Made by a program: the position numbers and the translations under genes. Under the pieces are notes generated by a model, which searched no databases, had not been told where the DNA came from, and was given only the letters and a program-made list of their open reading frames with translations. Of a stretch of DNA of 8,219 nt, positions 722-8,219 are shown one piece after another. Origin of the DNA: T1SED10-198M sp003554345 [NCBI: Candidatus Sumerlaeota bacterium] (GTDB taxonomy: Bacteria; Sumerlaeota; T1SED10-198M); assembly GCA_003554345.1 (NCBI GenBank), contig PWGE01000148.1:1-8219 (forward strand), given 5' to 3'. Numbering within the stretch: the stretch's first letter is position 1; the number at the start of each line of letters is the position of its first letter.

Positions 722-906
722 AACGAGAAGTTTGGTAAAGTATCTGGCAAATTAAAGGGGACCGGCAAACGGAAAAGAGGTGCAAGTCCTCTACGGTCGC
801 GCCGCTGTGATGGATGAAAGTCCCGTTCCATTGCCACTGTGCTTTTTGAAGCATGGGAAGGTTTCGGGAACTGCTCTGCACATCCTCAGTCAGAAGACGT
901 GTCGTT
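722..906 (+). promoter_or_regulatory. Cobalamin (B12) riboswitch
   Basis: The conserved parts of the cobalamin aptamer occur in the right order. They are AAAGGGGA at 754-761; the P4 hairpin AGAGG/CCTCT (776-780 with 788-792) around TGCAAGT, giving the signature GGTGCAAGTCC; ACGGTCGCGCCGCTGTGA at 793-810; GATGAAAGTCC near 813-823; a perfect B12 box GCCACTG at 833-839; a small hairpin TGCTT/AAGCA (840-853) followed by TGGGAAGG at 854-861; and the 3' signature AGTCAGAAGAC at 888-898. AACGA (722-726) can pair with TCGTT (902-906) as a short closing stem, which sets the limits given here. I could not fold P2 by eye. In this RNA class, ligand binding normally represses the downstream gene. The first gene downstream is the propeller protein at 946. 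Confidence 0.93.
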
Positions 907-942
907 TCCTTTTATAGCAGCTCTTTCGCGTAAAAGGAGATG
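903..942 (+). promoter_or_regulatory. Riboswitch expression platform: hairpin hiding the Shine-Dalgarno
   Basis: TCCTTTTA (907-914) pairs perfectly with TAAAAGGA (931-938). The stem extends outward through 903-906 with 939-942, with two wobble pairs, to about 12 pairs, and covers AGGAG (935-939). There is no T-run after it, so control is probably translational rather than by termination. The loop carries GCAGC (917-921), which can pair with GCTGT (804-808) in the aptamer with one G-U pair. This resembles the L5-L13 kissing contact known for cobalamin riboswitches. Bases 903-906 are shared with the proposed aptamer closing stem. The pairing is read directly from sequence; its function is inferred. 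Confidence 0.75.
934..939 (+). promoter_or_regulatory. Ribosome binding site favouring a TTG start at 946
   Basis: AAGGAG at 934-939 directly touches the ATG at 940, leaving no spacer, so that ATG is poorly placed. The in-frame TTG at 946 has a 6-base spacer, which is in the normal range. An in-frame stop at 931-933 rules out anything earlier. TTG 946 is therefore the more likely start. Confidence 0.6.
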
Positions 943-945
943 TTT

Positions 946-2181
946 TTGGTTACGAAACTGTTCATTGTGGCACTATGGTGGTGTCTGTTCTTTTCCCACT
1001 CCATTGAATTCACCGATCCCGTTATTATTTCCGGTGAAGGAAAATTTACTCTTTCCTCACATGCCCGCCGAAACCTGGTGGCCACCAATAACGGAAAACT
1101 ATTTGTTACCTACTGGAGTGAAGATGGCTCTGTGTCTCCCGGTAGTCCATCGCTGGCATATGTTCAGAAAAGAACTTCTTCACGTTCCTGGTCAAACCCC
1201 ATCAGGGTCAATAAAGAATTCGGTGCCCGCCACAGTTCGCTTCTTCTGACTGACAAAGCCCTTCATGTCACATGGCATGATTATCGCCACTGTTCTTCTC
1301 ATTCTAACTGGATGGATCAGGTGGAAATATATTACAACAAATTTTGCCTGGAAGAATATCCGGACTCTCAGGGTAATATTCGAATCACTTCTCCTGAAAA
1401 ACATCATGCTGGAAACAACCGTTTTGTTCCCGTTCCTTTCCTTCTGGATAATGACGAAATCGGGCTGGTCTGGTATGATTTTTATTTCGATGGTCATTGC
1501 AGTGAAATTTTTTTCACTGGTACCTCCCGGGGAGATTGGGAAACCGATCTGGAACATTCCACCCTTAATCTGACAAAAGCTGATGAAGAGCGGCCCCCTT
1601 ATACCATGCCGGACGCTACTTTTGATGGGAAGAAAACACATATTGCCTGGACAGATACCACAAACTGGAAGGGAAATCTGTATTACGGCATCAAGGAAGA
1701 TAAATCCTTTCGATATAAAAAAGTTGCTTCCCAAACCAGCAGCTATTTTGATCCGCCTCGAATATACGTTATACACGATACTCCCTATATCCTGACAACT
1801 GCTTTCAATGAAAACAATGAATCCAGAATAGTAGCTCTGGAGATGGATTCTTCGAAGCTGGAGGTCAGCGCTTCACATGAACTGACACCCTTCGACGGAC
1901 GTTATAGTCAACCAGTAATGGCGGTATTGAATGATACTGTAACTATAAGCTGGATACATAATAGCAGGAAAGTCTTCCTGGCTCAATTCGCATATGATGA
2001 TTGGAATGAAACACAAGAGCTACTGCTGTTTGAAAAAAGCAGGAGTGATCAGTCGATGAAGGTTAGCCTGGCAACTGATTCAGAAGAGATATTGTACGCC
2101 CTATGGAATTATCAGGGAGATATTTACTTTACTTCTACAGAATTACCAACATCTGTGGAGAATTTCCAGCTGTTTCAATAA
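946..2181 (+). CDS. Exported seven-unit beta-propeller protein under B12 riboswitch control
   Basis: This protein is about 411 residues from TTG 946 (413 from ATG 940; the numbering below uses 940). Residues 5-22 form a signal peptide (VTKLFIVALWWCLFFSHS). C15 follows WW, so it is not a normal lipobox cysteine. The rest is built from about seven repeated beta units with a strand-W-x-D/E-turn-strand pattern: VTYWSEDG (56-63), VTWHDYRH (110-117), LVWYDFYFDGH (176-186), IAWTDTTNW (235-243), TTAFNENN (286-293), ISWIHNS (336-342) and ALWNYQG (387-393). This suggests a sialidase-like or other beta-propeller, but no Asp-box (SxDxGxTW) or catalytic RIP motif is visible, so sialidase activity is unlikely. 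Units 2 and 3 are rich in His, Trp, Tyr and Cys (H113, H117, C118, H121, H186, C187). The upstream cobalamin riboswitch and the downstream binding protein point to a role in corrinoid capture. That role is inferred. Confidence 0.88.
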   Translation: MVTKLFIVALWWCLFFSHSIEFTDPVIISGEGKFTLSSHARRNLVATNNGKLFVTYWSEDGSVSPGSPSLAYVQKRTSSRSWSNPIRVNKEFGARHSSLLLTDKALHVTWHDYRHCSSHSNWMDQVEIYYNKFCLEEYPDSQGNIRITSPEKHHAGNNRFVPVPFLLDNDEIGLVWYDFYFDGHCSEIFFTGTSRGDWETDLEHSTLNLTKADEERPPYTMPDATFDGKKTHIAWTDTTNWKGNLYYGIKEDKSFRYKKVASQTSSYFDPPRIYVIHDTPYILTTAFNENNESRIVALEMDSSKLEVSASHELTPFDGRYSQPVMAVLNDTVTISWIHNSRKVFLAQFAYDDWNETQELLLFEKSRSDQSMKVSLATDSEEILYALWNYQGDIYFTSTELPTSVENFQLFQ

Positions 2182-2214
2182 TTTGAAAAAAATACATGCC
2201 AGAGGAGTATTTTC

Positions 2215-3090
2215 ATGAAGTATCTATTGTTCATTGGTATCCTGTGCTGCCTGGGCCTGAGCAGCGGAGAAACATTGACTGAAGAGTTTTCTCATGACTT
2301 TAGCTCAGATCCCTATGAAGCCGGTTTTCAATATCACGGTCTCCGTTACGACCAGGGGCTTAAAGAAGAAGCTACGCCACCTGATCCCCCATCTTTTGAG
2401 TGGAACGAGGAGGCCAGTGCGCTTCTATGCACCTGGGATTCGCATGAGAATAATGCTGTTTTCGCCAGACAACTGCCTTTCTGGGTAGATGAAACCGCTG
2501 ATTTTGAGTTCACGTTTGAGTTTGAGCTGCATCATATTGACGCTCATGATTTTCACCAGATCGCTGTTGGTTTCCGCAATCTGGAAACCATGAACTTTTC
2601 TCGATCAGGCAGCAATATGGGAGATGAGGACTGCCGATTGATTTGTAAAGATATTGTGGAATGGGGATATATGCCTGCTGAGACTTCTGAATCCTCTCCT
2701 CGAGTATATCCTGTAATTGCCACCTCCCGCGGGGATGATTTTATTTTTAACTGGGTCATGGAAACTACCACGCTCCAGACTGAAAAACGCTACCGGGTAC
2801 AACAATCCTGGGATAGTTCATCACGTCTTCTTGAAACGTCGATGTTCTACCAGGAAAACGAAGAATGGGTGGAAATGACAGGAGAAGATATTAACACACC
2901 CCTGGAGTTGCCAGAGAACAGGGGTTTTCAGGTTAATGCACTGGCAGTAAGTCAGTACAAAGACTTTGCCGATTTCTGGGATTTTGGAACACCGGAAGAC
3001 AAGAATACTGTATCGGGGAAAATCTTTAACATTTCTTATTCAGTTGATCTCAACAAAACCATGATAGAAGACTGGTGTCTGTATAATTAG
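2215..3090 (+). CDS. Exported beta-rich (concanavalin-like) protein, function unknown
   Basis: This 291-residue protein starts at an ATG 7 bases after AGAGGAG (2201-2207), only 33 bases downstream of the propeller gene, so the two are probably co-transcribed. Residues 1-18 are a signal peptide (MKYLLFIGILCCLGLSSG); the cysteines at 11-12 are not in a normal lipobox. The mature part is acidic and aromatic, with alternating strand patterns: FEWNEEASALLCTWDS (61-76), DFEFTFEFELHHI (96-108), HQIAVGFRNLE (114-124), IVEWGYMP (147-154), YPVIATS (165-171) and FQVNALAVSQY (238-248). The order (F-W-N-A-L-x-TWDS, then FELxxI, QIAVGFxNL, VEWxYxP and a late LAVxxY) matches from memory a family of uncharacterised secreted, LamG/concanavalin-like proteins in Verrucomicrobia and relatives. 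Four paired or near-paired cysteines (C72, C140, C144, C288) may form disulfides. A corrinoid- or glycan-binding role is only inferred from its neighbours. Confidence 0.88.
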   Translation: MKYLLFIGILCCLGLSSGETLTEEFSHDFSSDPYEAGFQYHGLRYDQGLKEEATPPDPPSFEWNEEASALLCTWDSHENNAVFARQLPFWVDETADFEFTFEFELHHIDAHDFHQIAVGFRNLETMNFSRSGSNMGDEDCRLICKDIVEWGYMPAETSESSPRVYPVIATSRGDDFIFNWVMETTTLQTEKRYRVQQSWDSSSRLLETSMFYQENEEWVEMTGEDINTPLELPENRGFQVNALAVSQYKDFADFWDFGTPEDKNTVSGKIFNISYSVDLNKTMIEDWCLYN

Positions 3091-3261
3091 CAAGAAAATA
3101 TATCTTCTTCAGGTTTCATATTATTGATATTGCTGTGGTGTTCCCATGGTTAATAGACCTCTCCCATCAGATATCGTTGCCATCAAGAAAGAAAATAAAG
3201 CATGTGGAATGAGATGAAATGACAGGTAACAGTATGGACACAAATACAGTGAGACCGATCG

Positions 3262-3288
3262 GACAAAAAAATCGGATTTGTTTTTGTC
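3262..3288 (+). repeat. Inverted repeat upstream of the binding-protein gene
   Basis: GACAAAAA (3262-3269) is complementary to TTTTTGTC (3281-3288). AAT/ATT (3270-3272 with 3276-3278) extends the stem around a CGG loop, leaving a two-base bulge. An overlapping alternative, CCGAT (3255-3259) with ATCGG (3271-3275), shares the same bases, so two structures could compete. The right arm is T-rich, which could make this a weak terminator or attenuator, or it could be a protein operator. No cobalamin aptamer motif is present in the 3091-3397 spacer. Confidence 0.35.
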
Positions 3289-3300
3289 AGAAAAATACAA

Positions 3301-3329
3301 TTGTTCAATTGAATCCAGACTGCTAAAAT
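3301..3329 (+). promoter_or_regulatory. Candidate internal promoter for the binding-protein gene
   Basis: TTGTTC (3301-3306) and TAAAAT (3324-3329) are separated by 17 bases. A TGC directly before the -10 gives an extended -10 element that can compensate for the poor -35. Predicted transcription starts near 3336. A perfect palindrome TTCAATTGAA (3304-3313) lies between the two boxes, and an inverted repeat CTAAAAT-TT-ATTTTAG (3323-3338) covers the -10, as expected of an operator. If real, the binding protein can be expressed independently of the riboswitch. Confidence 0.35.
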
Positions 3330-3397
3330 TTATTTTAGAGGGTAGATCTGTGAAAAATATGTTACACACGAGACATAAGAATAAAGAAAAGGCCAGG

Positions 3398-4288
3398 ATG
3401 AATAAAAGAATTATTGTGAGACTCTATGCAGCTGCTGTACTCATATTACTTTCAGGAAATCTTTTAGCTGCTGATCCCGGAAACGAATATGAAAGACTGG
3501 TCATTTTCGGGCCTAATTTAGCTGAGATTGTCTATAAACTGGGAGGAGAGGATTTCATTATAGCTGTGGACAGTTTCACAGATTATCCCCCGTCTTTAAA
3601 AGAATTGCCCCGTAGCGGCACGTTGAGTCATCCAAACCTGGAGGTAATTGTTGAGGAAGAAGCAGATCTGGTCATGATTCAGGGTGATAACCAGAAGTTG
3701 AGGGATTTCTGCCGCAAACAGGGTATTGCCTACCGTGTGTATCGGTTGGAAGGGGTGGCTGGTATAAAAGAGGGGATAATGGATATCGGACGATTGCTTG
3801 ACAGGGAAGCGAGAGCCCGGGAGTTTGTTGATTCTTTGAATAAAAAATGTAAGGAACAGGAAAAGCCTGAAAAGAGGAACCGTCCCGGCATTTTGATCAC
3901 TCTGAGCGGATTGAGTCCCGAGGTCAATGTGACGACGGTTGGCAAAAATACCTTTCTGTCAGAATTGCTGGAAAAAGCGGGTGGAGAGAATGTTTTTGCA
4001 GATATTGGTATTGCGTATCCCCGGGTAACCATGGAAAAAATTATGGTGAGAAATCCCGAGATGATATTCGAAATAATGCCCGGTAAGGAGTTAAGCGATA
4101 AAGAGCGTCATCAGCGTAAAAAATTCTGGCAAAGATTTCCCTCCCTGCAAGCTGTCAGAAATGATGAAATTCATTTTTTAACTGAGGATTTTTTATTGAT
4201 TCCCGGTCCACGTATAGGGCAAACCTACGAAGTATTTCAAAAGCAAATCTCAGAGTATCAGGGCAGGAAAACACAGGGCGACCGATAA
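3398..4288 (+). CDS. Periplasmic substrate-binding protein, BtuF/FepB-type (corrinoid or siderophore uptake)
   Basis: From ATG 3398 this is a 296-residue protein. It has a clean signal peptide (MNKRIIVRLYAAAVLILLSG, cleavage near LLA-A25) and no lipobox, so it is a soluble periplasmic protein. It shows the features of the helical-backbone Peripla_BP_2 family. These are YERLVIFGPNLAEIVYKLGG (31-50), the YPPSLKELPRSGT strand-turn (63-75), HPNLEVIVEEEADLVM (78-93), then a linking helix region rich in charge (about 123-160), GKNTFLSELLEKAGGENVF (182-200), PRVTMEKIMVRNPEMIF (208-224) and a C-terminal PGPRIGQT (269-276). Family members deliver B12, iron-siderophores or haem to ABC permeases. B12 is favoured here by the riboswitch 2.5 kb upstream. 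Other possible starts are GTG 3350, preceded by GAGGG with 7-base spacing, and codons up to 3278, which lies inside a hairpin. No permease or ATPase gene adjoins it. Confidence 0.87.
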   Translation: MNKRIIVRLYAAAVLILLSGNLLAADPGNEYERLVIFGPNLAEIVYKLGGEDFIIAVDSFTDYPPSLKELPRSGTLSHPNLEVIVEEEADLVMIQGDNQKLRDFCRKQGIAYRVYRLEGVAGIKEGIMDIGRLLDREARAREFVDSLNKKCKEQEKPEKRNRPGILITLSGLSPEVNVTTVGKNTFLSELLEKAGGENVFADIGIAYPRVTMEKIMVRNPEMIFEIMPGKELSDKERHQRKKFWQRFPSLQAVRNDEIHFLTEDFLLIPGPRIGQTYEVFQKQISEYQGRKTQGDR

Positions 4289-4619: not shown

Positions 4620-4724
4620 ATGAAAGAAAGGGATTGCAGAATCAGGGATAACTACCAGATAGATATTGACAATAGTCTGAAAATGGATACAATTTTCCAT
4701 AACAATACGCGAGGAGCACAATAA
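4620..4724 (+). CDS. Possible 34-residue leader peptide overlapping the next start
   Basis: An ATG at 4620 opens a 34-codon frame (MKERDCRIRDNYQIDIDNSL...) whose TAA at 4722-4724 overlaps the next gene's ATG as TAATG, the geometry of translational coupling. Only a weak purine-rich stretch (AGAAG, about 4609-4613) precedes it. The peptide is hydrophilic and has no recognisable family. The strong promoter at 4666-4693 lies inside it, so transcripts from that promoter would not carry it. The overlap may be chance. Confidence 0.2.
   Translation: MKERDCRIRDNYQIDIDNSLKMDTIFHNNTRGAQ
4666..4693 (+). promoter_or_regulatory. Strong sigma70-type promoter for the matrixin-like operon
   Basis: TTGACA (4666-4671) is a perfect -35. 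TACAAT (4688-4693) matches the -10 at five of six positions, and the spacer is 16 bases. Transcription should start near 4700, giving a leader of about 24 bases that just includes the ribosome binding site GAGGAG (4711-4716) of the gene at 4724. Confidence 0.7.
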
Positions 4725-5377
4725 TGAGCCTTTCGAAATATTTTCCATATGTATGGTGTTTACTTATATTTACGTTGCTTTCTTTTACAGGAGCAACGAC
4801 TTTCCGCTCGACTACTCTTGAAAAAATGGTTAACGAGAGTGACATGGTGATAGAAGGAACCTGTGTTGAAAAGTCGTCTCGCTGGGTGGGAAGCATGATC
4901 ATGACGGTGGCAGATATTGAAGTGCATTCTGTTTTGAGTGGTTCACAGAGCAGAAAAGAAAAGGAAGACGAAAAGCTCCAGCTGACGTATGTTGGAGGTT
5001 CTGTTGAGGAACCTTTACCTCTGGGACAGAAAATAGAGGGTGGTGTGAATCTGGAAAAAGGTGACCGGGCGTACCTGTTTTTGAATCGAACAAATCCTGA
5101 CAATCGGTTCTATGCAGAAACCCGCGAGGTGTTTGACCTGAAGGAGGATCCTTTAGAGGTAAAATCCATGGCGCGGGGTGTTTTTAAGATTGAAGAAGGA
5201 GAGTTGAAGTTCAACCGCTGGCAGGGCTCTTTCAAAAAGGAACTTTACGATAAATATGCTTCGGCAGAAGTGCGTCAGGAAAGAGATGAGTTGGAAGATC
5301 CCCACAAAGGATGGAAGGTTCAACCTGATAAGTTTGTCGGTGCTGTAAGAGACCTTTCCTCTGATGAAAGAGAATGA
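4724..5377 (+). CDS. Small exported protein of a matrixin-associated family
   Basis: This 217-residue protein has GAGGAG 7 bases before its ATG. Residues 1-24 form a signal peptide (core YVWCLLIFTLLSFTGA). The mature protein reads LEKMVNESDMVIEGTCVEKS (32-51), SRWVGSMIMTVADIEVHSVL (52-71), LQLTYVGGSVEE (85-96), then LEKGDRAYLFL (110-120) and a late RGVFKIEEGELKF (151-163). This follows a pattern I recall from uncharacterised small exported proteins encoded beside bacterial matrixin-family genes: 'V..SD.VV.G.V....S.W......T...V.V..VLKG', then 'GG', 'GE..LLFL' and 'G.F.V'. The C-terminal third is highly charged. Only 19 bases separate it from the next gene, which fits an operon. Its molecular role is unknown; an inhibitor, chaperone or surface partner of the downstream protein is conceivable but unproven. 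Confidence 0.88.
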   Translation: MSLSKYFPYVWCLLIFTLLSFTGATTFRSTTLEKMVNESDMVIEGTCVEKSSRWVGSMIMTVADIEVHSVLSGSQSRKEKEDEKLQLTYVGGSVEEPLPLGQKIEGGVNLEKGDRAYLFLNRTNPDNRFYAETREVFDLKEDPLEVKSMARGVFKIEEGELKFNRWQGSFKKELYDKYASAEVRQERDELEDPHKGWKVQPDKFVGAVRDLSSDERE

Positions 5378-5396: not shown

Positions 5397-8219
5397 ATGA
5401 AAAAATATGCATTCCTTTTTATTGTTGTCCTATCTTTTCTTCCATTTACCGCTTATGCTGCAGCAAACATGCAAATAATGGCGCGGCATGACGCAGGTAC
5501 CGGAGACCCTTATGATGATTATCTGAAACAGACTGACCTTAAGTGGCACTGGACGCCGGATTTTTATCTTTATCAGGCAGGCGACAGGGTTAGTTACTGG
5601 CTTGATGATTTTAGCTGGAATGAAGCCCGCGCAGAAATTCAAAGGGCTATGAATCAATGGAGTGATGTTAGTGGCTCTGACTTTAACTTTGGAGGGTTGC
5701 ATCCTCACGACTTTGCCCGTGAGCCTTCTATTCATGGTTATGCCGCTCTGGATGGGCATAATCTCATTACTTTTGCTGATAATGACTTTCCCGGTGGGGC
5801 CGATGCCTATGCCGTTACAAGTCTTTTTTATTTTGAGGAAGGGTTCGATACCCGTGAAATTGACTGGGATGACCCCCCTCGTGGGATATTAGGTAAAGTA
5901 GAAGACCGGGTGTTTGTCACACCTGATGAGGATGAATTCTGGGATTTTGAAGACCTGGTGGATGGCGATATCAGGAATGTGGCAGGTATTCCATATCGTG
6001 ATTATTATGAACCCGGGACTATCATTGACGCTGACATTGTATTTAATCCGGATCCTGAAGTAGATTTTCAGATCATCCCTGATGACCCGAGAGATCCTGG
6101 TTCTTACAGGGGTGTTCCGGATGTCAGGATGTTGGCTCTCAGGGAATTAGGACGGGCTATCGGATTGGCTGATTCTCTCCTGGAAAGAGCTGTTTTAACC
6201 TACGAACCTTTCGTTGCTGATGATTATGATAATGACGAAATACCTACCGATCCCTATGAGTTCAGGGAATTGAAACTGGATGATGAGATGGCTATAACCC
6301 TTACCTATCCCAAAGATGACTTAAAATCTGGCAACTATATAGCTGGAAATATTCTTGATGGACAGGCATACATACAGGATGATGACTTGCCTGATGATGG
6401 CGTTATTATGGCTAATCCTGTATACCTGGGTTATCCCACAGACCGACCGGGAAGACCCGACGTGGTGGATTCAGACCGTGGCCCTATACGCCTTGTGGCC
6501 CAGGTTTTTAGCGGGATAGGTAACCGCTTTCCTCTCTATGAGAACGGCGAGCTTGATTTTGCCAATAACGGAAAATATATTTTCCCGAATGTGCCGGAAC
6601 GTGACGACTGGGTTCTATATATAGAACCAATGGCAGATACAGATGCCGCAGATATCAATGAATATGTTGATGAGTACAGTGGTGATGAAGATTTTTCTGC
6701 CCAGTTTTTTGGGGTAGATGAATATTATCTGGACTATTTGCAGGGTTTTGATATTGCGGAAGCCGCTGGAGATTTTGTTTCCAATCATTTCCTGGAAATG
6801 TACGTGAATCAGTTTGGACAGTATTCTATTGGAGTCCCGGGTGGTGCTATGGCATTGGGAAATCATCCGTTTCCTTCCCGCAATTATGTCTCCATGAGGG
6901 TGGGTGGCAGCCAGAGTAATAACCGTCAGCGTGCCCTGGGAAGTGTGCCTCCTGGTGAAGCTCTTGAACTTGATGATAGTGCAAATACAGCGGATGGTAC
7001 CTGGCGTACCAACCAGGTAGAAGTTAACCAGAAGAATCACCTGGTAGGTAATACCCTTTATGTGGAATATAACCTGAAAAATACTGCCAGTGTTTCACAG
7101 AATGTTGATTTTCGTGTCTTCTGGGATATGGCAATAGGAGCTGATCCCTCTGCCGAGGTGTATAACGGCGATACTATGCAGAGATATACCTCTGCCCGTA
7201 CCCTGCAAAAAGGAGAGTATCCCCGTACCATTCATTTCCGGGATAGCAGTCCATCAACTCTTGTGCAAACTCAGCTTGATCTTGACCATACAGATGATCC
7301 ATCCAGAATTTTGCTGGGTGGTTTGCACGATATGCTTGATAGACCACATATTCCGAATGCTGTTGGTTCTTTAGACGAAAATATAGCCATGATTCTGTGC
7401 TACGATGGAATCAACCTGGCAGGGAACGAGGAAAAAAGGATACGTATCAGGTATGATATGATGGATTTTGCCGGATGGCGCGATGTTCCATATAATTCCA
7501 TTACCTTTGAAGATGAAGAGGGGGTGGAGCAGACTTATGAGATAAGTACCGATGAATCCCTTCTTTTTCTGGATAATACCGTTGGGGCTCTGGAGAATAT
7601 TAATATTTTTACCGATACCGATACCACGGTAGAATATCGTGAATTTCGGGATACTCCCACTCCACCGGTAGAATTCAGGGATGTTTCTGAATATACCCGT
7701 GATCCCCACTTGCCGGAACTGAATACTACCAGTCTCAGCGGCCGTTTTGCTGATTTAACGGGGAATGGCTACCTCGACATGGTACTGGCAGGAGGTGTTA
7801 ATAATGCTTTTAACTTCAGCGGCACCTCAAATCGCCTGATGATCAACGATGGCACCGGTAGATTTGAAGATGTGTCCGGGGAAGAGGGTCGTTTTCCCCA
7901 CTGGCAACAAGAGGCTACTTATGATGTCCTCCTGGAGGATTTTAATAATAACGGTCATATTGACATCTTTGTCTCTAATTTCGCGGCACCCGGGTTTTCG
8001 ACAGGTGCTCAAAATCGGCTTTTTATGAACCGGGGAGACGGGTCTTTTGATGATGTGACCAATGAACCTGCAGATCCCGACGATCCTGATTCTCCCACTG
8101 TTTTACCAGGAGTGCTTGATGAAGGTCCTTTTGTGGTGGGTGACCCTTCAACAAGACCGGCAGCAGCTGACCTTACCCGGAGTGGCTATAAGGATATTGT
8201 AGTGGCTAATTTTGGTTTC
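5397..8219 (+). CDS. Exported matrixin-like pseudo-protease with FG-GAP/VCBS repeats (3' end outside window)
   Basis: The frame is open for 941 codons to the window edge. ATG 5397 has TGAGGA 8 bases upstream; the in-frame ATG 5382 is less well placed. The signal peptide is residues 1-21 (MKKYAFLFIVVLSFLPFTAYA). Residues about 50-305 follow the matrixin layout: a helix with AEIQRAMNQWSDVSGSDFNF (79-98), DGHNLITF (119-126), IIDADIVFNP (209-218), the active-site helix LALRELGRAIGLADS (246-260), and LKLDDEMAITLTYP near 300. The zinc motif HExxHxxGxxH is present in frame but reads R249-E250-R253-G256-D259. The Met-turn equivalent is AVLTY (265-269). So the zinc site appears lost while the glutamate and glycine remain. 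Residues about 312-411 (YIAGNILDG through GKYIFPNVPE) resemble a carboxypeptidase-regulatory-like beta domain. About 535-735 is another beta-rich region (VEYNLKNTA, VFWDMAIG). Three FG-GAP-like calcium-loop repeats follow: DLTGNGYLD (786-794), DFNNNGHID (848-856) and DLTRSGYKD (925-933). Confidence 0.93.
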   Translation, partial: MKKYAFLFIVVLSFLPFTAYAAANMQIMARHDAGTGDPYDDYLKQTDLKWHWTPDFYLYQAGDRVSYWLDDFSWNEARAEIQRAMNQWSDVSGSDFNFGGLHPHDFAREPSIHGYAALDGHNLITFADNDFPGGADAYAVTSLFYFEEGFDTREIDWDDPPRGILGKVEDRVFVTPDEDEFWDFEDLVDGDIRNVAGIPYRDYYEPGTIIDADIVFNPDPEVDFQIIPDDPRDPGSYRGVPDVRMLALRELGRAIGLADSLLERAVLTYEPFVADDYDNDEIPTDPYEFRELKLDDEMAITLTYPKDDLKSGNYIAGNILDGQAYIQDDDLPDDGVIMANPVYLGYPTDRPGRPDVVDSDRGPIRLVAQVFSGIGNRFPLYENGELDFANNGKYIFPNVPERDDWVLYIEPMADTDAADINEYVDEYSGDEDFSAQFFGVDEYYLDYLQGFDIAEAAGDFVSNHFLEMYVNQFGQYSIGVPGGAMALGNHPFPSRNYVSMRVGGSQSNNRQRALGSVPPGEALELDDSANTADGTWRTNQVEVNQKNHLVGNTLYVEYNLKNTASVSQNVDFRVFWDMAIGADPSAEVYNGDTMQRYTSARTLQKGEYPRTIHFRDSSPSTLVQTQLDLDHTDDPSRILLGGLHDMLDRPHIPNAVGSLDENIAMILCYDGINLAGNEEKRIRIRYDMMDFAGWRDVPYNSITFEDEEGVEQTYEISTDESLLFLDNTVGALENINIFTDTDTTVEYREFRDTPTPPVEFRDVSEYTRDPHLPELNTTSLSGRFADLTGNGYLDMVLAGGVNNAFNFSGTSNRLMINDGTGRFEDVSGEEGRFPHWQQEATYDVLLEDFNNNGHIDIFVSNFAAPGFSTGAQNRLFMNRGDGSFDDVTNEPADPDDPDSPTVLPGVLDEGPFVVGDPSTRPAAADLTRSGYKDIVVANFGF

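What the first reader, a model, noticed from the sequence alone, without database searches (positions are those of the whole stretch)
722..4288. B12-riboswitch locus with a propeller, a beta-sandwich protein and a BtuF-like binder: possible new corrinoid-capture system
A well-formed cobalamin riboswitch controls an exported seven-unit propeller, not a known B12 gene, followed by an exported beta-rich protein and a BtuF/FepB-type binding protein. In Bacteroides, the surface protein BtuG is a seven-bladed propeller that binds cobalamin very tightly and hands it to BtuB (established). Here the propeller shares the fold type and the regulation but no visible BtuG sequence signature or standard lipobox. 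This could be an independently evolved propeller-based capture system. The riboswitch and gene order are seen directly; the function is inferred.
Basis: partly seen in the sequence, partly recalled or inferred. Interest (0 to 1): 0.85.

Follow-up and report, generated by a model that had tools for sequence, protein, structure and literature searches.

The report
Vitamin B12 capture operon without TonB
In a little-known bacterial phylum, a vitamin B12-sensing RNA switch stands before genes for an exported propeller-shaped protein, a lectin-shaped protein and a B12-type binding protein; their relatives keep returning beside B12 switches, B12 pump genes and a dedicated pilin, which suggests a way of gathering B12 that may not need the usual outer-membrane transporter.

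Summary
A cobalamin riboswitch (746-920) precedes an exported beta-propeller (940-2181), a legume-lectin-like protein (2215-3090) and a BtuF-type protein (3398-4288). The window is a contig of a Candidatus Sumerlaeota genome. The corrinoid link is not chance. A full-length propeller is in 19 of 40 Sumerlaeota genomes, and all 19 lie behind a cobalamin riboswitch. So do the five best copies outside the phylum (five of 14 hits examined); two of those have a TonB receptor in the same run, and one is in a run with BtuF, BtuC, BtuD, a weak lectin-like relative and a pilin. Of 54 Sumerlaeota riboswitches read, 51 are followed by this propeller, by other exported beta proteins that mostly end in W-x-x-[YWFL], or by a pilin. 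The window's genome has that pilin behind its second riboswitch. TonB plug domains are found in 4 of 40 genomes and Omp85 in 38 of 40, so most are diderm without a detected BtuB-type receptor. Best reading: a riboswitch-controlled corrinoid-capture system that works like BtuG but is not BtuG by sequence, linked to a pilin. Corrinoid binding and the pilin's role are inferred; the C-terminal motif is phylum-wide, not B12-specific.

The parts
746..920 (+). Cobalamin riboswitch aptamer (RF00174)
   Evidence: 64.3 bits, E 1.8e-14, full-length model match
903..942 (+). Predicted hairpin (903-918 with 928-942) that buries the Shine-Dalgarno sequence and the ATG at 940; fits translational control, direction not determined
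   Evidence: RNA fold of 746-960 and pairing probabilities of 0.98-1.00 for 932-939; the region's total energy is not unusual against shuffles (z -0.94), so this is a suggestion only
940..2181 (+). Exported beta-propeller protein (PROP); start may be TTG at 946
   Evidence: Open frame; no Pfam, NCBIfam or PDB sequence hit; model pLDDT 88, propeller fold; full-length homologues in 18 other Sumerlaeota genomes and in 5 examined genomes outside, all riboswitch-linked
2158..2178 (+). C-terminal tail ENFQLFQ: F in place of W, so a divergent or absent W-x-x-[YWFL] motif
   Evidence: Sequence; position aligned with the motif of its homologues
2215..3090 (+). Exported beta protein (BETA), legume-lectin-like jelly roll
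   Evidence: Model pLDDT 80, Z about 16 to legume lectins; two homologous domains each in riboswitch loci of G009 and G030, a weak one (42 bits) in G304
3067..3087 (+). C-terminal tail EDWCLYN, the motif shared with most of the other riboswitch-linked exported proteins
   Evidence: Sequence; motif counts
3091..3397 (+). Gap of 307 nt between BETA and btuF; no terminator-like site found in it on the + strand
3398..4288 (+). BtuF-type periplasmic binding protein; longer ORF from TTG at 3278
   Evidence: Pfam Peripla_BP_2 69 bits; NCBIfam BtuF model 70 bits, below its cut-off of 234; clusters with BtuF-like proteins of riboswitch loci in G006, G012, G013, G016

Best explanation
This is a cobalamin-riboswitch-controlled corrinoid acquisition locus of a Sumerlaeota bacterium, a phylum whose members mostly have an outer membrane. 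Shown: riboswitch, gene order, predicted folds, and the recurrent linkage of these families to cobalamin riboswitches and btuFCD. Inferred: when cellular cobalamin is low the riboswitch allows expression of the exported propeller and the lectin-fold protein, which capture corrinoids (free, or carried by other molecules) outside the cytoplasm; BtuF passes them to BtuCD. Most of these genomes lack a detectable TonB receptor but have a distinctive riboswitch-linked pilin (in this genome behind its second cobalamin riboswitch). The pilin is therefore the best candidate for what delivers the binders, or their cargo, across or near the outer membrane in place of BtuB. In two genomes outside the phylum the same propeller family sits in a run with a TonB receptor, as BtuG sits beside BtuB.
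For: Riboswitch. PROP homologues: 19 of 40 phylum genomes full length, at 398 bits or more, with the next hits at 52 bits apart from one 196-bit end fragment in G011; all 19 downstream of a cobalamin riboswitch on the same strand. By eye, none of the 81 weak propeller hits lies within 40 kb, on the same contig, of a riboswitch listed. Outside the phylum, 14 of 346 genomes have a hit at E<=1e-15; I examined the best 5 and all 5 are riboswitch-linked. G304 has BtuF-BtuC-BtuD-BETA-PROP-pilin behind one riboswitch. G104 and G156 have a TonB receptor in the PROP run. Fifty-one of 54 Sumerlaeota riboswitches read lead into PROP, other mostly tagged beta proteins or a pilin; the three others lead into btuFDC, NRDD ribonucleotide reductase and MetE, ordinary cobalamin-riboswitch targets. 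Pilin family in 36 of 40 genomes, 28 of 36 in a riboswitch unit. Plug domain 4 of 40; Omp85 38 of 40.
Against: No binding data. The best fold matches of both exported proteins are mostly carbohydrate-binding or carbohydrate-acting proteins. BtuF lies 307 nt downstream and scores below the curated BtuF cut-off. The pilin is on another contig in this genome. The W-x-x-Y-E motif is phylum-wide (232 matches against 42 for the reversed pattern), so it is not specific to B12. Genomes with both the riboswitch-linked pilin and TonB plug domains exist: G007 and G021 in the phylum, G182 and G319 outside, so the pilin does not strictly replace TonB. Eight of 36 pilins are not in a detected riboswitch unit. 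Omp85 and Plug were both not found in the window's own incomplete genome.
Confidence: 0.75

Rival explanations
1. The propeller and the jelly-roll protein are lectins or glycan-binding adhesins. Under B12 starvation the cell exports them to attach to corrinoid-producing neighbours, biofilm or polysaccharide; they do not bind corrinoid themselves.
For: Top fold matches include PLL-type lectins, sialidase/glycoside-hydrolase and CylK propellers for PROP and legume lectins for BETA; some homologues match BNR_4, two above its cut-off (G304, G104) and three below it; the C-terminal motif is carried by varied proteins.
Against: Linkage to btuFCD in single runs of genes and to TonB receptors in two genomes outside the phylum. 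A shared fold does not show ligand. A beta-jelly-roll fold is also that of the B12-binding BtuJ/DUF4465 family (PMC12751083 passages, PMC13398666 abstract and part of Results).
Confidence: 0.15
2. The pilin, and not the propeller, is the core. Pilin and motif-bearing proteins form a general secretion or surface-display route, and the riboswitch loci are only the corrinoid-specific cargo of that route.
For: The pilin is more widespread (36 of 40) than PROP (19 of 40); the C-terminal motif is found far beyond riboswitch loci; in G024 and G032 the pilin sits beside tagged proteins with no riboswitch detected nearby.
Against: The riboswitch-linked pilin is a distinct family among dozens of pilin candidates per genome (next hits at most 92 bits and mostly N-terminal), which argues for a corrinoid-specific role. 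This rival is compatible with the best explanation and differs in what the pilin does.
Confidence: 0.35
3. The genes serve something else that cobalamin status regulates, such as cobalt or nickel handling or a B12-independent replacement pathway.
For: Cobalamin riboswitches also precede NRDD and MetE in this phylum; a nickel-insertion (LarC-type) gene follows one riboswitch-tag-pilin locus (L124); G182 has a CobT-type gene after the riboswitch-linked pilin.
Against: Recurrent BtuF, BtuC and BtuD behind the same riboswitches; TonB receptors in the PROP run of G104 and G156; no enzyme family matched by PROP or BETA.
Confidence: 0.07
4. Chance neighbourhood of ordinary exported proteins and a riboswitch.
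For: Within the window alone this could not be excluded; BtuF is 307 nt away.
Against: 19 of 19 and 5 of 5 linkage, against none of 81 weak propeller hits near a listed riboswitch (by eye).
Confidence: 0.01

Closest known systems
BtuG (Bacteroidetes surface B12-binding propeller, PDB 3DSM; PMC6143338, passages read)
   Same: Exported beta-propeller in cobalamin-riboswitch loci with btu transport genes; in G104 next to a TonB receptor and in G156 one gene away from one.
   Different: 3DSM is not among the PDB hits of the PROP profile up to E 10; no lipobox; the paper found no BtuG homologues outside Bacteroidetes with its parameters; most Sumerlaeota genomes have no detected TonB receptor and many loci have a pilin.
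BtuH (B12-binding surface protein, PDB 7BIZ; PMC8941943, passages read)
   Same: The tagged family of about 260 aa behind Sumerlaeota riboswitches (A7) has 7BIZ as its best PDB profile hit.
   Different: E 0.19, 14 bits: a hint, not a demonstration. This family is not in the window.
BtuJ / DUF4465 B12-binding jelly rolls (PMC12751083 passages; PMC13398666 abstract and part of Results)
   Same: Exported beta jelly roll in a B12-riboswitch locus, like the window's second protein in general fold.
   Different: No Pfam match of the window protein at E<=1; best fold matches are legume lectins.
BtuFCD cobalamin ABC transporter
   Same: BtuF-type protein in the window; BtuF, BtuD and BtuC behind one riboswitch in G006, G013, G016, G015, G025, G004, G009 (second riboswitch) and G304 (BtuC cut by the contig end in G013 and G025).
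   Different: The window's copy scores below the curated BtuF cut-off; no BtuC or BtuD found among the five window ORFs scanned.
BtuB / TonB-dependent transporter
   Same: Plug and barrel domains in a gene of the PROP run in G104 and G156.
   Different: Plug domain in only 4 of 40 Sumerlaeota genomes and not in the window's genome.
Type IV / type II pseudopilins (N_methyl, TIGR02532)
   Same: The riboswitch-linked pilin has the N-terminal cleavage motif.
   Different: No Pfam family beyond the N-terminal motif for the G013 copy. Four papers of the library hold both 'pilin' and 'cobalamin riboswitch'; I saw only their listing, so whether any describes such a pilin is unread.

Membership tests
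Cobalamin riboswitch (RF00174) | Full-length covariance-model match above gathering score | tested here: met
   64.3 bits against 31.5, positions 1-189 of 189
BtuG | Beta-propeller fold | tested here: met
   pLDDT 88 model, propeller matches with Z 28-32
BtuG | Seven blades | tested here: inconclusive
   25 strands of three or more residues fit six to seven blades; best matches are seven-bladed by recall; not counted on coordinates
BtuG | Detectable sequence homology to BtuG | tested here: not met
   Profile A1 against all PDB chains: two hits up to E 10 (4jgb, 7quj), not 3DSM
BtuG | Structural match to BtuG | tested here: inconclusive
   BtuG not among the 50 rows shown; unlisted is not excluded
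BtuG | Lipobox and lipoprotein export signal | tested here: not met
   By eye, no [LVI]-[AST]-[GA]-C at the N-terminus of the 940-2181 protein
BtuG | btuB in the same locus | tested here: not met
   No Plug domain found in the window's (incomplete) genome; but met in homologous loci G104 and G156
BtuG | Tight cobalamin binding | not testable with these tools
   Needs purified protein
BtuF | Periplasmic binding protein family of the BtuF/FepB type | tested here: met
   Peripla_BP_2 69 bits
BtuF | Score above the curated BtuF equivalog cut-off | tested here: not met
   70 bits against 234; two other binding-protein models score slightly higher (80.5 and 74.3), also below their cut-offs
BtuJ / DUF4465 | Pfam DUF4465 match | tested here: not met
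   0 Pfam families for the 2215-3090 protein at E<=1
Transcobalamin-like C-terminal domain (DUF4430) | Pfam match of the X1c proteins | tested here: not met
   No such match at E<=10 in 4 proteins; the resemblance was recalled by eye
Type IV pilin-like protein | N-terminal prepilin cleavage/methylation motif | tested here: met
   PF07963 and TIGR02532 above cut-off for the G013 copy; the window genome's copy (L004) shows the same motif in alignment A3

The most novel reading that the evidence does not exclude
Sumerlaeota, and at least one genome outside the phylum (G304, which has the full set in one run of genes and no detected Plug domain), take up corrinoids across the outer membrane without a TonB-dependent receptor. 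Interchangeable exported binders (propellers, lectin-like jelly rolls, BtuH-like proteins), most with a common C-terminal W-x-x-[YWFL] tail, work with a dedicated cobalamin-riboswitch-controlled pseudopilin that retrieves or displays them, and BtuFCD completes import: a pilin-based vitamin uptake system.
Probability: 0.3. Interest if true: 0.95.

Novelty: new variant of a known kind. Interest (0 to 1): 0.85.

Why it matters
Large scarce nutrients such as B12 are taken across the outer membrane by TonB-dependent transporters in the cases I can recall. Here a diderm phylum that mostly lacks a detected TonB receptor keeps BtuFCD under cobalamin riboswitches together with exported beta-propellers, lectin-fold proteins and a dedicated pilin. 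If these proteins bind corrinoid, propeller-based B12 capture extends beyond Bacteroidetes in a second family without detectable sequence relation to BtuG, and the question of how TonB-less diderms obtain B12 becomes directly testable. The riboswitch also gives an experimental handle for finding unknown corrinoid binders: in Sumerlaeota most riboswitches read here point at a candidate.

Tried and rejected
A single-protein scan of genome contigs with the window propeller found no relatives; the relation showed against the genomes of its own phylum and by profile. A scan with A1 was impossible because no stretch was conserved enough, so I used the pilin alignment A2, which named the phylum. A viral-contig scan with the second protein gave nothing.

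I thought the X1c proteins were transcobalamin-like (DUF4430); Pfam gives no match even at E 10 and a PDB search with one copy gave none, so I dropped the idea. I thought the C-terminal motif was a B12-specific tag; the genome-wide count (232 against 42) shows it is general. Of 19 sampled places of that pattern, 15 end an open frame; many of these look exported by eye, but one (L129) resembles a DnaB helicase, so some matches are chance. The 12 of 12 tagged members of family A7 are circular, because I picked that family by its tail; without it 46 of 54 complete ORFs of the beta families carry the motif, against 1 of 59 BtuF/BtuC/BtuD/pilin ORFs and 5 of 564 unlabelled ORFs. That the pilin strictly replaces TonB is weakened by G007, G021, G182 and G319, which have both.

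Seven of the eight pilins outside a detected riboswitch unit (loci L167-L173) were searched with a permissive Rfam threshold; no cobalamin riboswitch appeared. The eighth (G011) follows a propeller fragment at a contig start. BtuG is absent from the 50 structural rows shown, which excludes nothing. The papers named under Closest known systems were seen only as passages, abstract or part of Results; other papers only as listings with the start of the abstract; two searches listed none.

Limits of counts: only a capped number of first-look candidates was scored in the riboswitch searches (81 per genome, 74, 137), eight per genome and four, so counts are lower bounds; I examined 5 of 14 out-of-phylum PROP hits; G039:C404 was not fetched; among the 51 of 54, L115 counts as a pilin at only 56 bits, L117 as an end-of-contig fragment (75 bits), L075 by its tail and a 16.7-bit match. 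The riboswitch-to-pilin pairing (28 of 36) and the 81 weak-hit comparison were done by eye; many contigs are shorter than 40 kb.
Full report
What is in the window. The 8,219-base window is a whole contig (C7) of a 2.55 Mb, 454-contig genome assembly, 87.7% complete. A full-length cobalamin riboswitch lies at 746-920 (64.3 bits, E 1.8e-14). It is followed on the same strand by an exported propeller protein at 940-2181 (PROP), an exported beta protein at 2215-3090 (BETA), and, after 307 nt, a BtuF-type binding protein at 3398-4288. A hairpin predicted just behind the aptamer (903-918 with 928-942) buries the Shine-Dalgarno sequence, with pairing probabilities of 0.98-1.00 for 932-939; the energy of the whole leader is not unusual against shuffles (z -0.94), so this only suggests translational control. 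PROP has no Pfam, NCBIfam or PDB sequence hit. BETA has no Pfam hit and one NCBIfam hit without meaning (E 0.14). The two genes after btuF (4724-5377, no hit; 5400-8219, FG-GAP repeats, cut by the contig end) are not part of the set as far as I can tell.

Folds. The AlphaFold2 model of PROP from 19 relatives has pLDDT 88 and pTM 0.89 and is nearly all-beta, with 25 strands of three or more residues. Foldseek and VIA-align place it among propellers: CylK Z 32 (rmsd 3.2-3.5 A, 336-339 residues aligned), PLL-type lectins Z 28-29. The model of BETA (5 sequences, pLDDT 80) matches legume lectins, Z about 16. Many of the best matches are sugar-related, which keeps a lectin rival alive.

Where relatives occur. 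A search of 61 genomes found PROP relatives in 18 others, all of the same phylum. With a profile, 19 of 40 Sumerlaeota genomes have a full-length PROP at 398 bits or more, and the next hits drop to 52 bits apart from a 196-bit end fragment in G011. Cobalamin riboswitches lie upstream of PROP on the same strand in all 19. By eye, none of the 81 weaker propeller hits lies within 40 kb of a listed riboswitch on the same contig; the nearest is about 48 kb away in G004.

Test outside the phylum. In 386 genomes, 346 of them outside Sumerlaeota, 14 outside genomes have a PROP hit at E<=1e-15 (four candidates scored per genome). I took the best five (136-230 bits) and asked for riboswitches afterwards: all five have one upstream on the same strand, 0.3 to 4.0 kb away. 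In G304 one riboswitch leads into BtuF, BtuC, BtuD, a weak BETA relative (42 bits), PROP and the pilin, in that order. In G104 a TonB receptor directly precedes PROP; in G156 one follows PROP with one gene between. The nine weaker outside hits were not examined.

The wider set in Sumerlaeota. I read the DNA behind 54 of 55 riboswitches listed in 37 of 40 genomes. In 51 of 54 the next genes are PROP, other exported beta proteins, a pilin, or a combination: PQQ-type propellers (X1a), NHL-like propellers (X1b; weak PDB profile hits), BETA, X1c, and a family of about 260 residues (A7). Three of the 51 rest on weak or partial matches (L075, L115, L117). The three others lead into btuFDC, NRDD and MetE. 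All 12 A7 members match NCBIfam LIC_13355-family lipoproteins, the one shown in full far below cut-off, and the best PDB profile hit of A7 is 7BIZ, the BtuH2 structure, at E 0.19: a hint only. BtuF, BtuD and BtuC stand behind the same riboswitch in G006, G013, G016, G015, G025 and G004, and alone behind a second one in G009; that they share a transcript is inferred from order and strand.

The pilin. The riboswitch-linked pilin family is in 36 of 40 Sumerlaeota genomes, clearly apart from the other pilins (187 bits or more against 92 or less), and 28 of the 36 sit in a riboswitch unit. In the window's genome the copy lies behind the second cobalamin riboswitch, on contig C92. Outside the phylum, three genomes have it above 170 bits (G304, G319, G182) and in all three it is behind a cobalamin riboswitch. 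Of the 19 PROP genomes, 18 have the pilin; G036 (66% complete) does not.

The C-terminal motif. PROP, X1a, X1b, X1c and BETA mostly end in W-x-x-[YWFL] plus up to two residues: 46 of 54 complete ORFs, against 1 of 59 BtuF/BtuC/BtuD/pilin ORFs and 5 of 564 unlabelled ones (two of these five look like exported proteins). In the window BETA ends EDWCLYN; PROP ends ENFQLFQ, a divergent form. The motif is not B12-specific: the DNA pattern for W-x-x-Y-E-stop occurs 232 times in 40 genomes against 42 for the reversed pattern. I read it as a general sorting or docking tail of this phylum.

Outer membrane. Omp85 is found in 38 of 40 genomes (20 of 20 of the best), the TonB plug domain in 4 of 40 (2 of 20). 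The four are G007, G021, G029 and G032; G007 and G021 also have PROP and the riboswitch-linked pilin. The window's own genome has neither domain detected and is incomplete. G304 also has no plug domain; G182 and G319 have two and four, G104 five, G156 eight.

How it most likely works. Shown: the switch, the gene order, the predicted folds and the repeated linkage. Inferred: at low cobalamin the switch permits expression; the propeller and the lectin-fold protein capture corrinoids outside the cytoplasm; BtuF and BtuCD import them; the pilin delivers or displays the binders in lineages without a TonB receptor. Positions kept in outside relatives (W-x-D-x-R, E-x-Y/F, a following N-x-x-P stretch, W-x-D, by eye) suggest one shared ligand site, but no ligand is shown.

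Compared with what is known. It works like the BtuG system of Bacteroidetes (PMC6143338, passages), but is not a member by sequence, lacks the lipobox and, here, has no detected TonB receptor. In the open-licence library two papers hold both 'Sumerlaeota' and 'cobalamin', each with the first word once (listing); none holds 'Sumerlaeota' and 'TonB'; four hold 'pilin' and 'cobalamin riboswitch' (listing, not read). These searches do not cover subscription journals.

Noticed in passing
L126, L128-L134, L136-L141, L143: A C-terminal W-x-x-Y-E tail is enriched across Sumerlaeota genomes (232 pattern matches against 42 for the reversed pattern); in these 15 of 19 sampled loci it ends an open frame, often of an exported-looking protein (L129 looks like a DnaB helicase, so chance): a possible undescribed sorting or docking signal.
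   Followed up: partly
L160 (G304), riboswitch at contig C75:15339-15540: A genome outside Sumerlaeota carries BtuF, BtuC, BtuD, a weak BETA relative, PROP and the pilin behind one cobalamin riboswitch.
   Followed up: yes
L165 (G156) and L166 (G104): PROP relatives in one run with TonB receptors; the G156 protein ends in a FlgD_ig-type domain (35 bits) instead of the W-x-x-Y tail, and the G104 protein looks similar by eye.
   Followed up: partly
L124:2415-4429 (G001); by eye also L116 and L118: An AIR-carboxylase-type gene and a nickel-insertion (LarC-type) gene follow the riboswitch, tagged protein and pilin: a possible link between corrinoid and nickel-cofactor genes.
   Followed up: no
L162:7098-8006 (G182): A CobT-type phosphoribosyltransferase with a histidine-rich N-terminus follows the riboswitch-linked pilin.
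   Followed up: no
L106:1585-2571 (G031): A delta-aminolevulinic acid dehydratase (HemB) gene follows the riboswitch-linked pilin.
   Followed up: no
L078:874-1896 (G030): A putative esterase ending in a W-x-x-L-type tail lies downstream of a riboswitch-linked double BETA protein.
   Followed up: no
window 5400-8219: Large exported FG-GAP protein cut by the contig end; by eye it holds LRELGRAIGL, which resembles a matrixin zinc site with both histidines replaced (recalled motif, untested).
   Followed up: no
L012:1438-1484 and L024:600-646 (G011): Acido-Lenti-1 RNAs near the propeller genes of G011.
   Followed up: no
A7 family, e.g. L114:808-1575: Riboswitch-linked tagged proteins without a Pfam family; all 12 match the LIC_13355 lipoprotein family, and their best PDB profile hit is BtuH2 (E 0.19).
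   Followed up: partly
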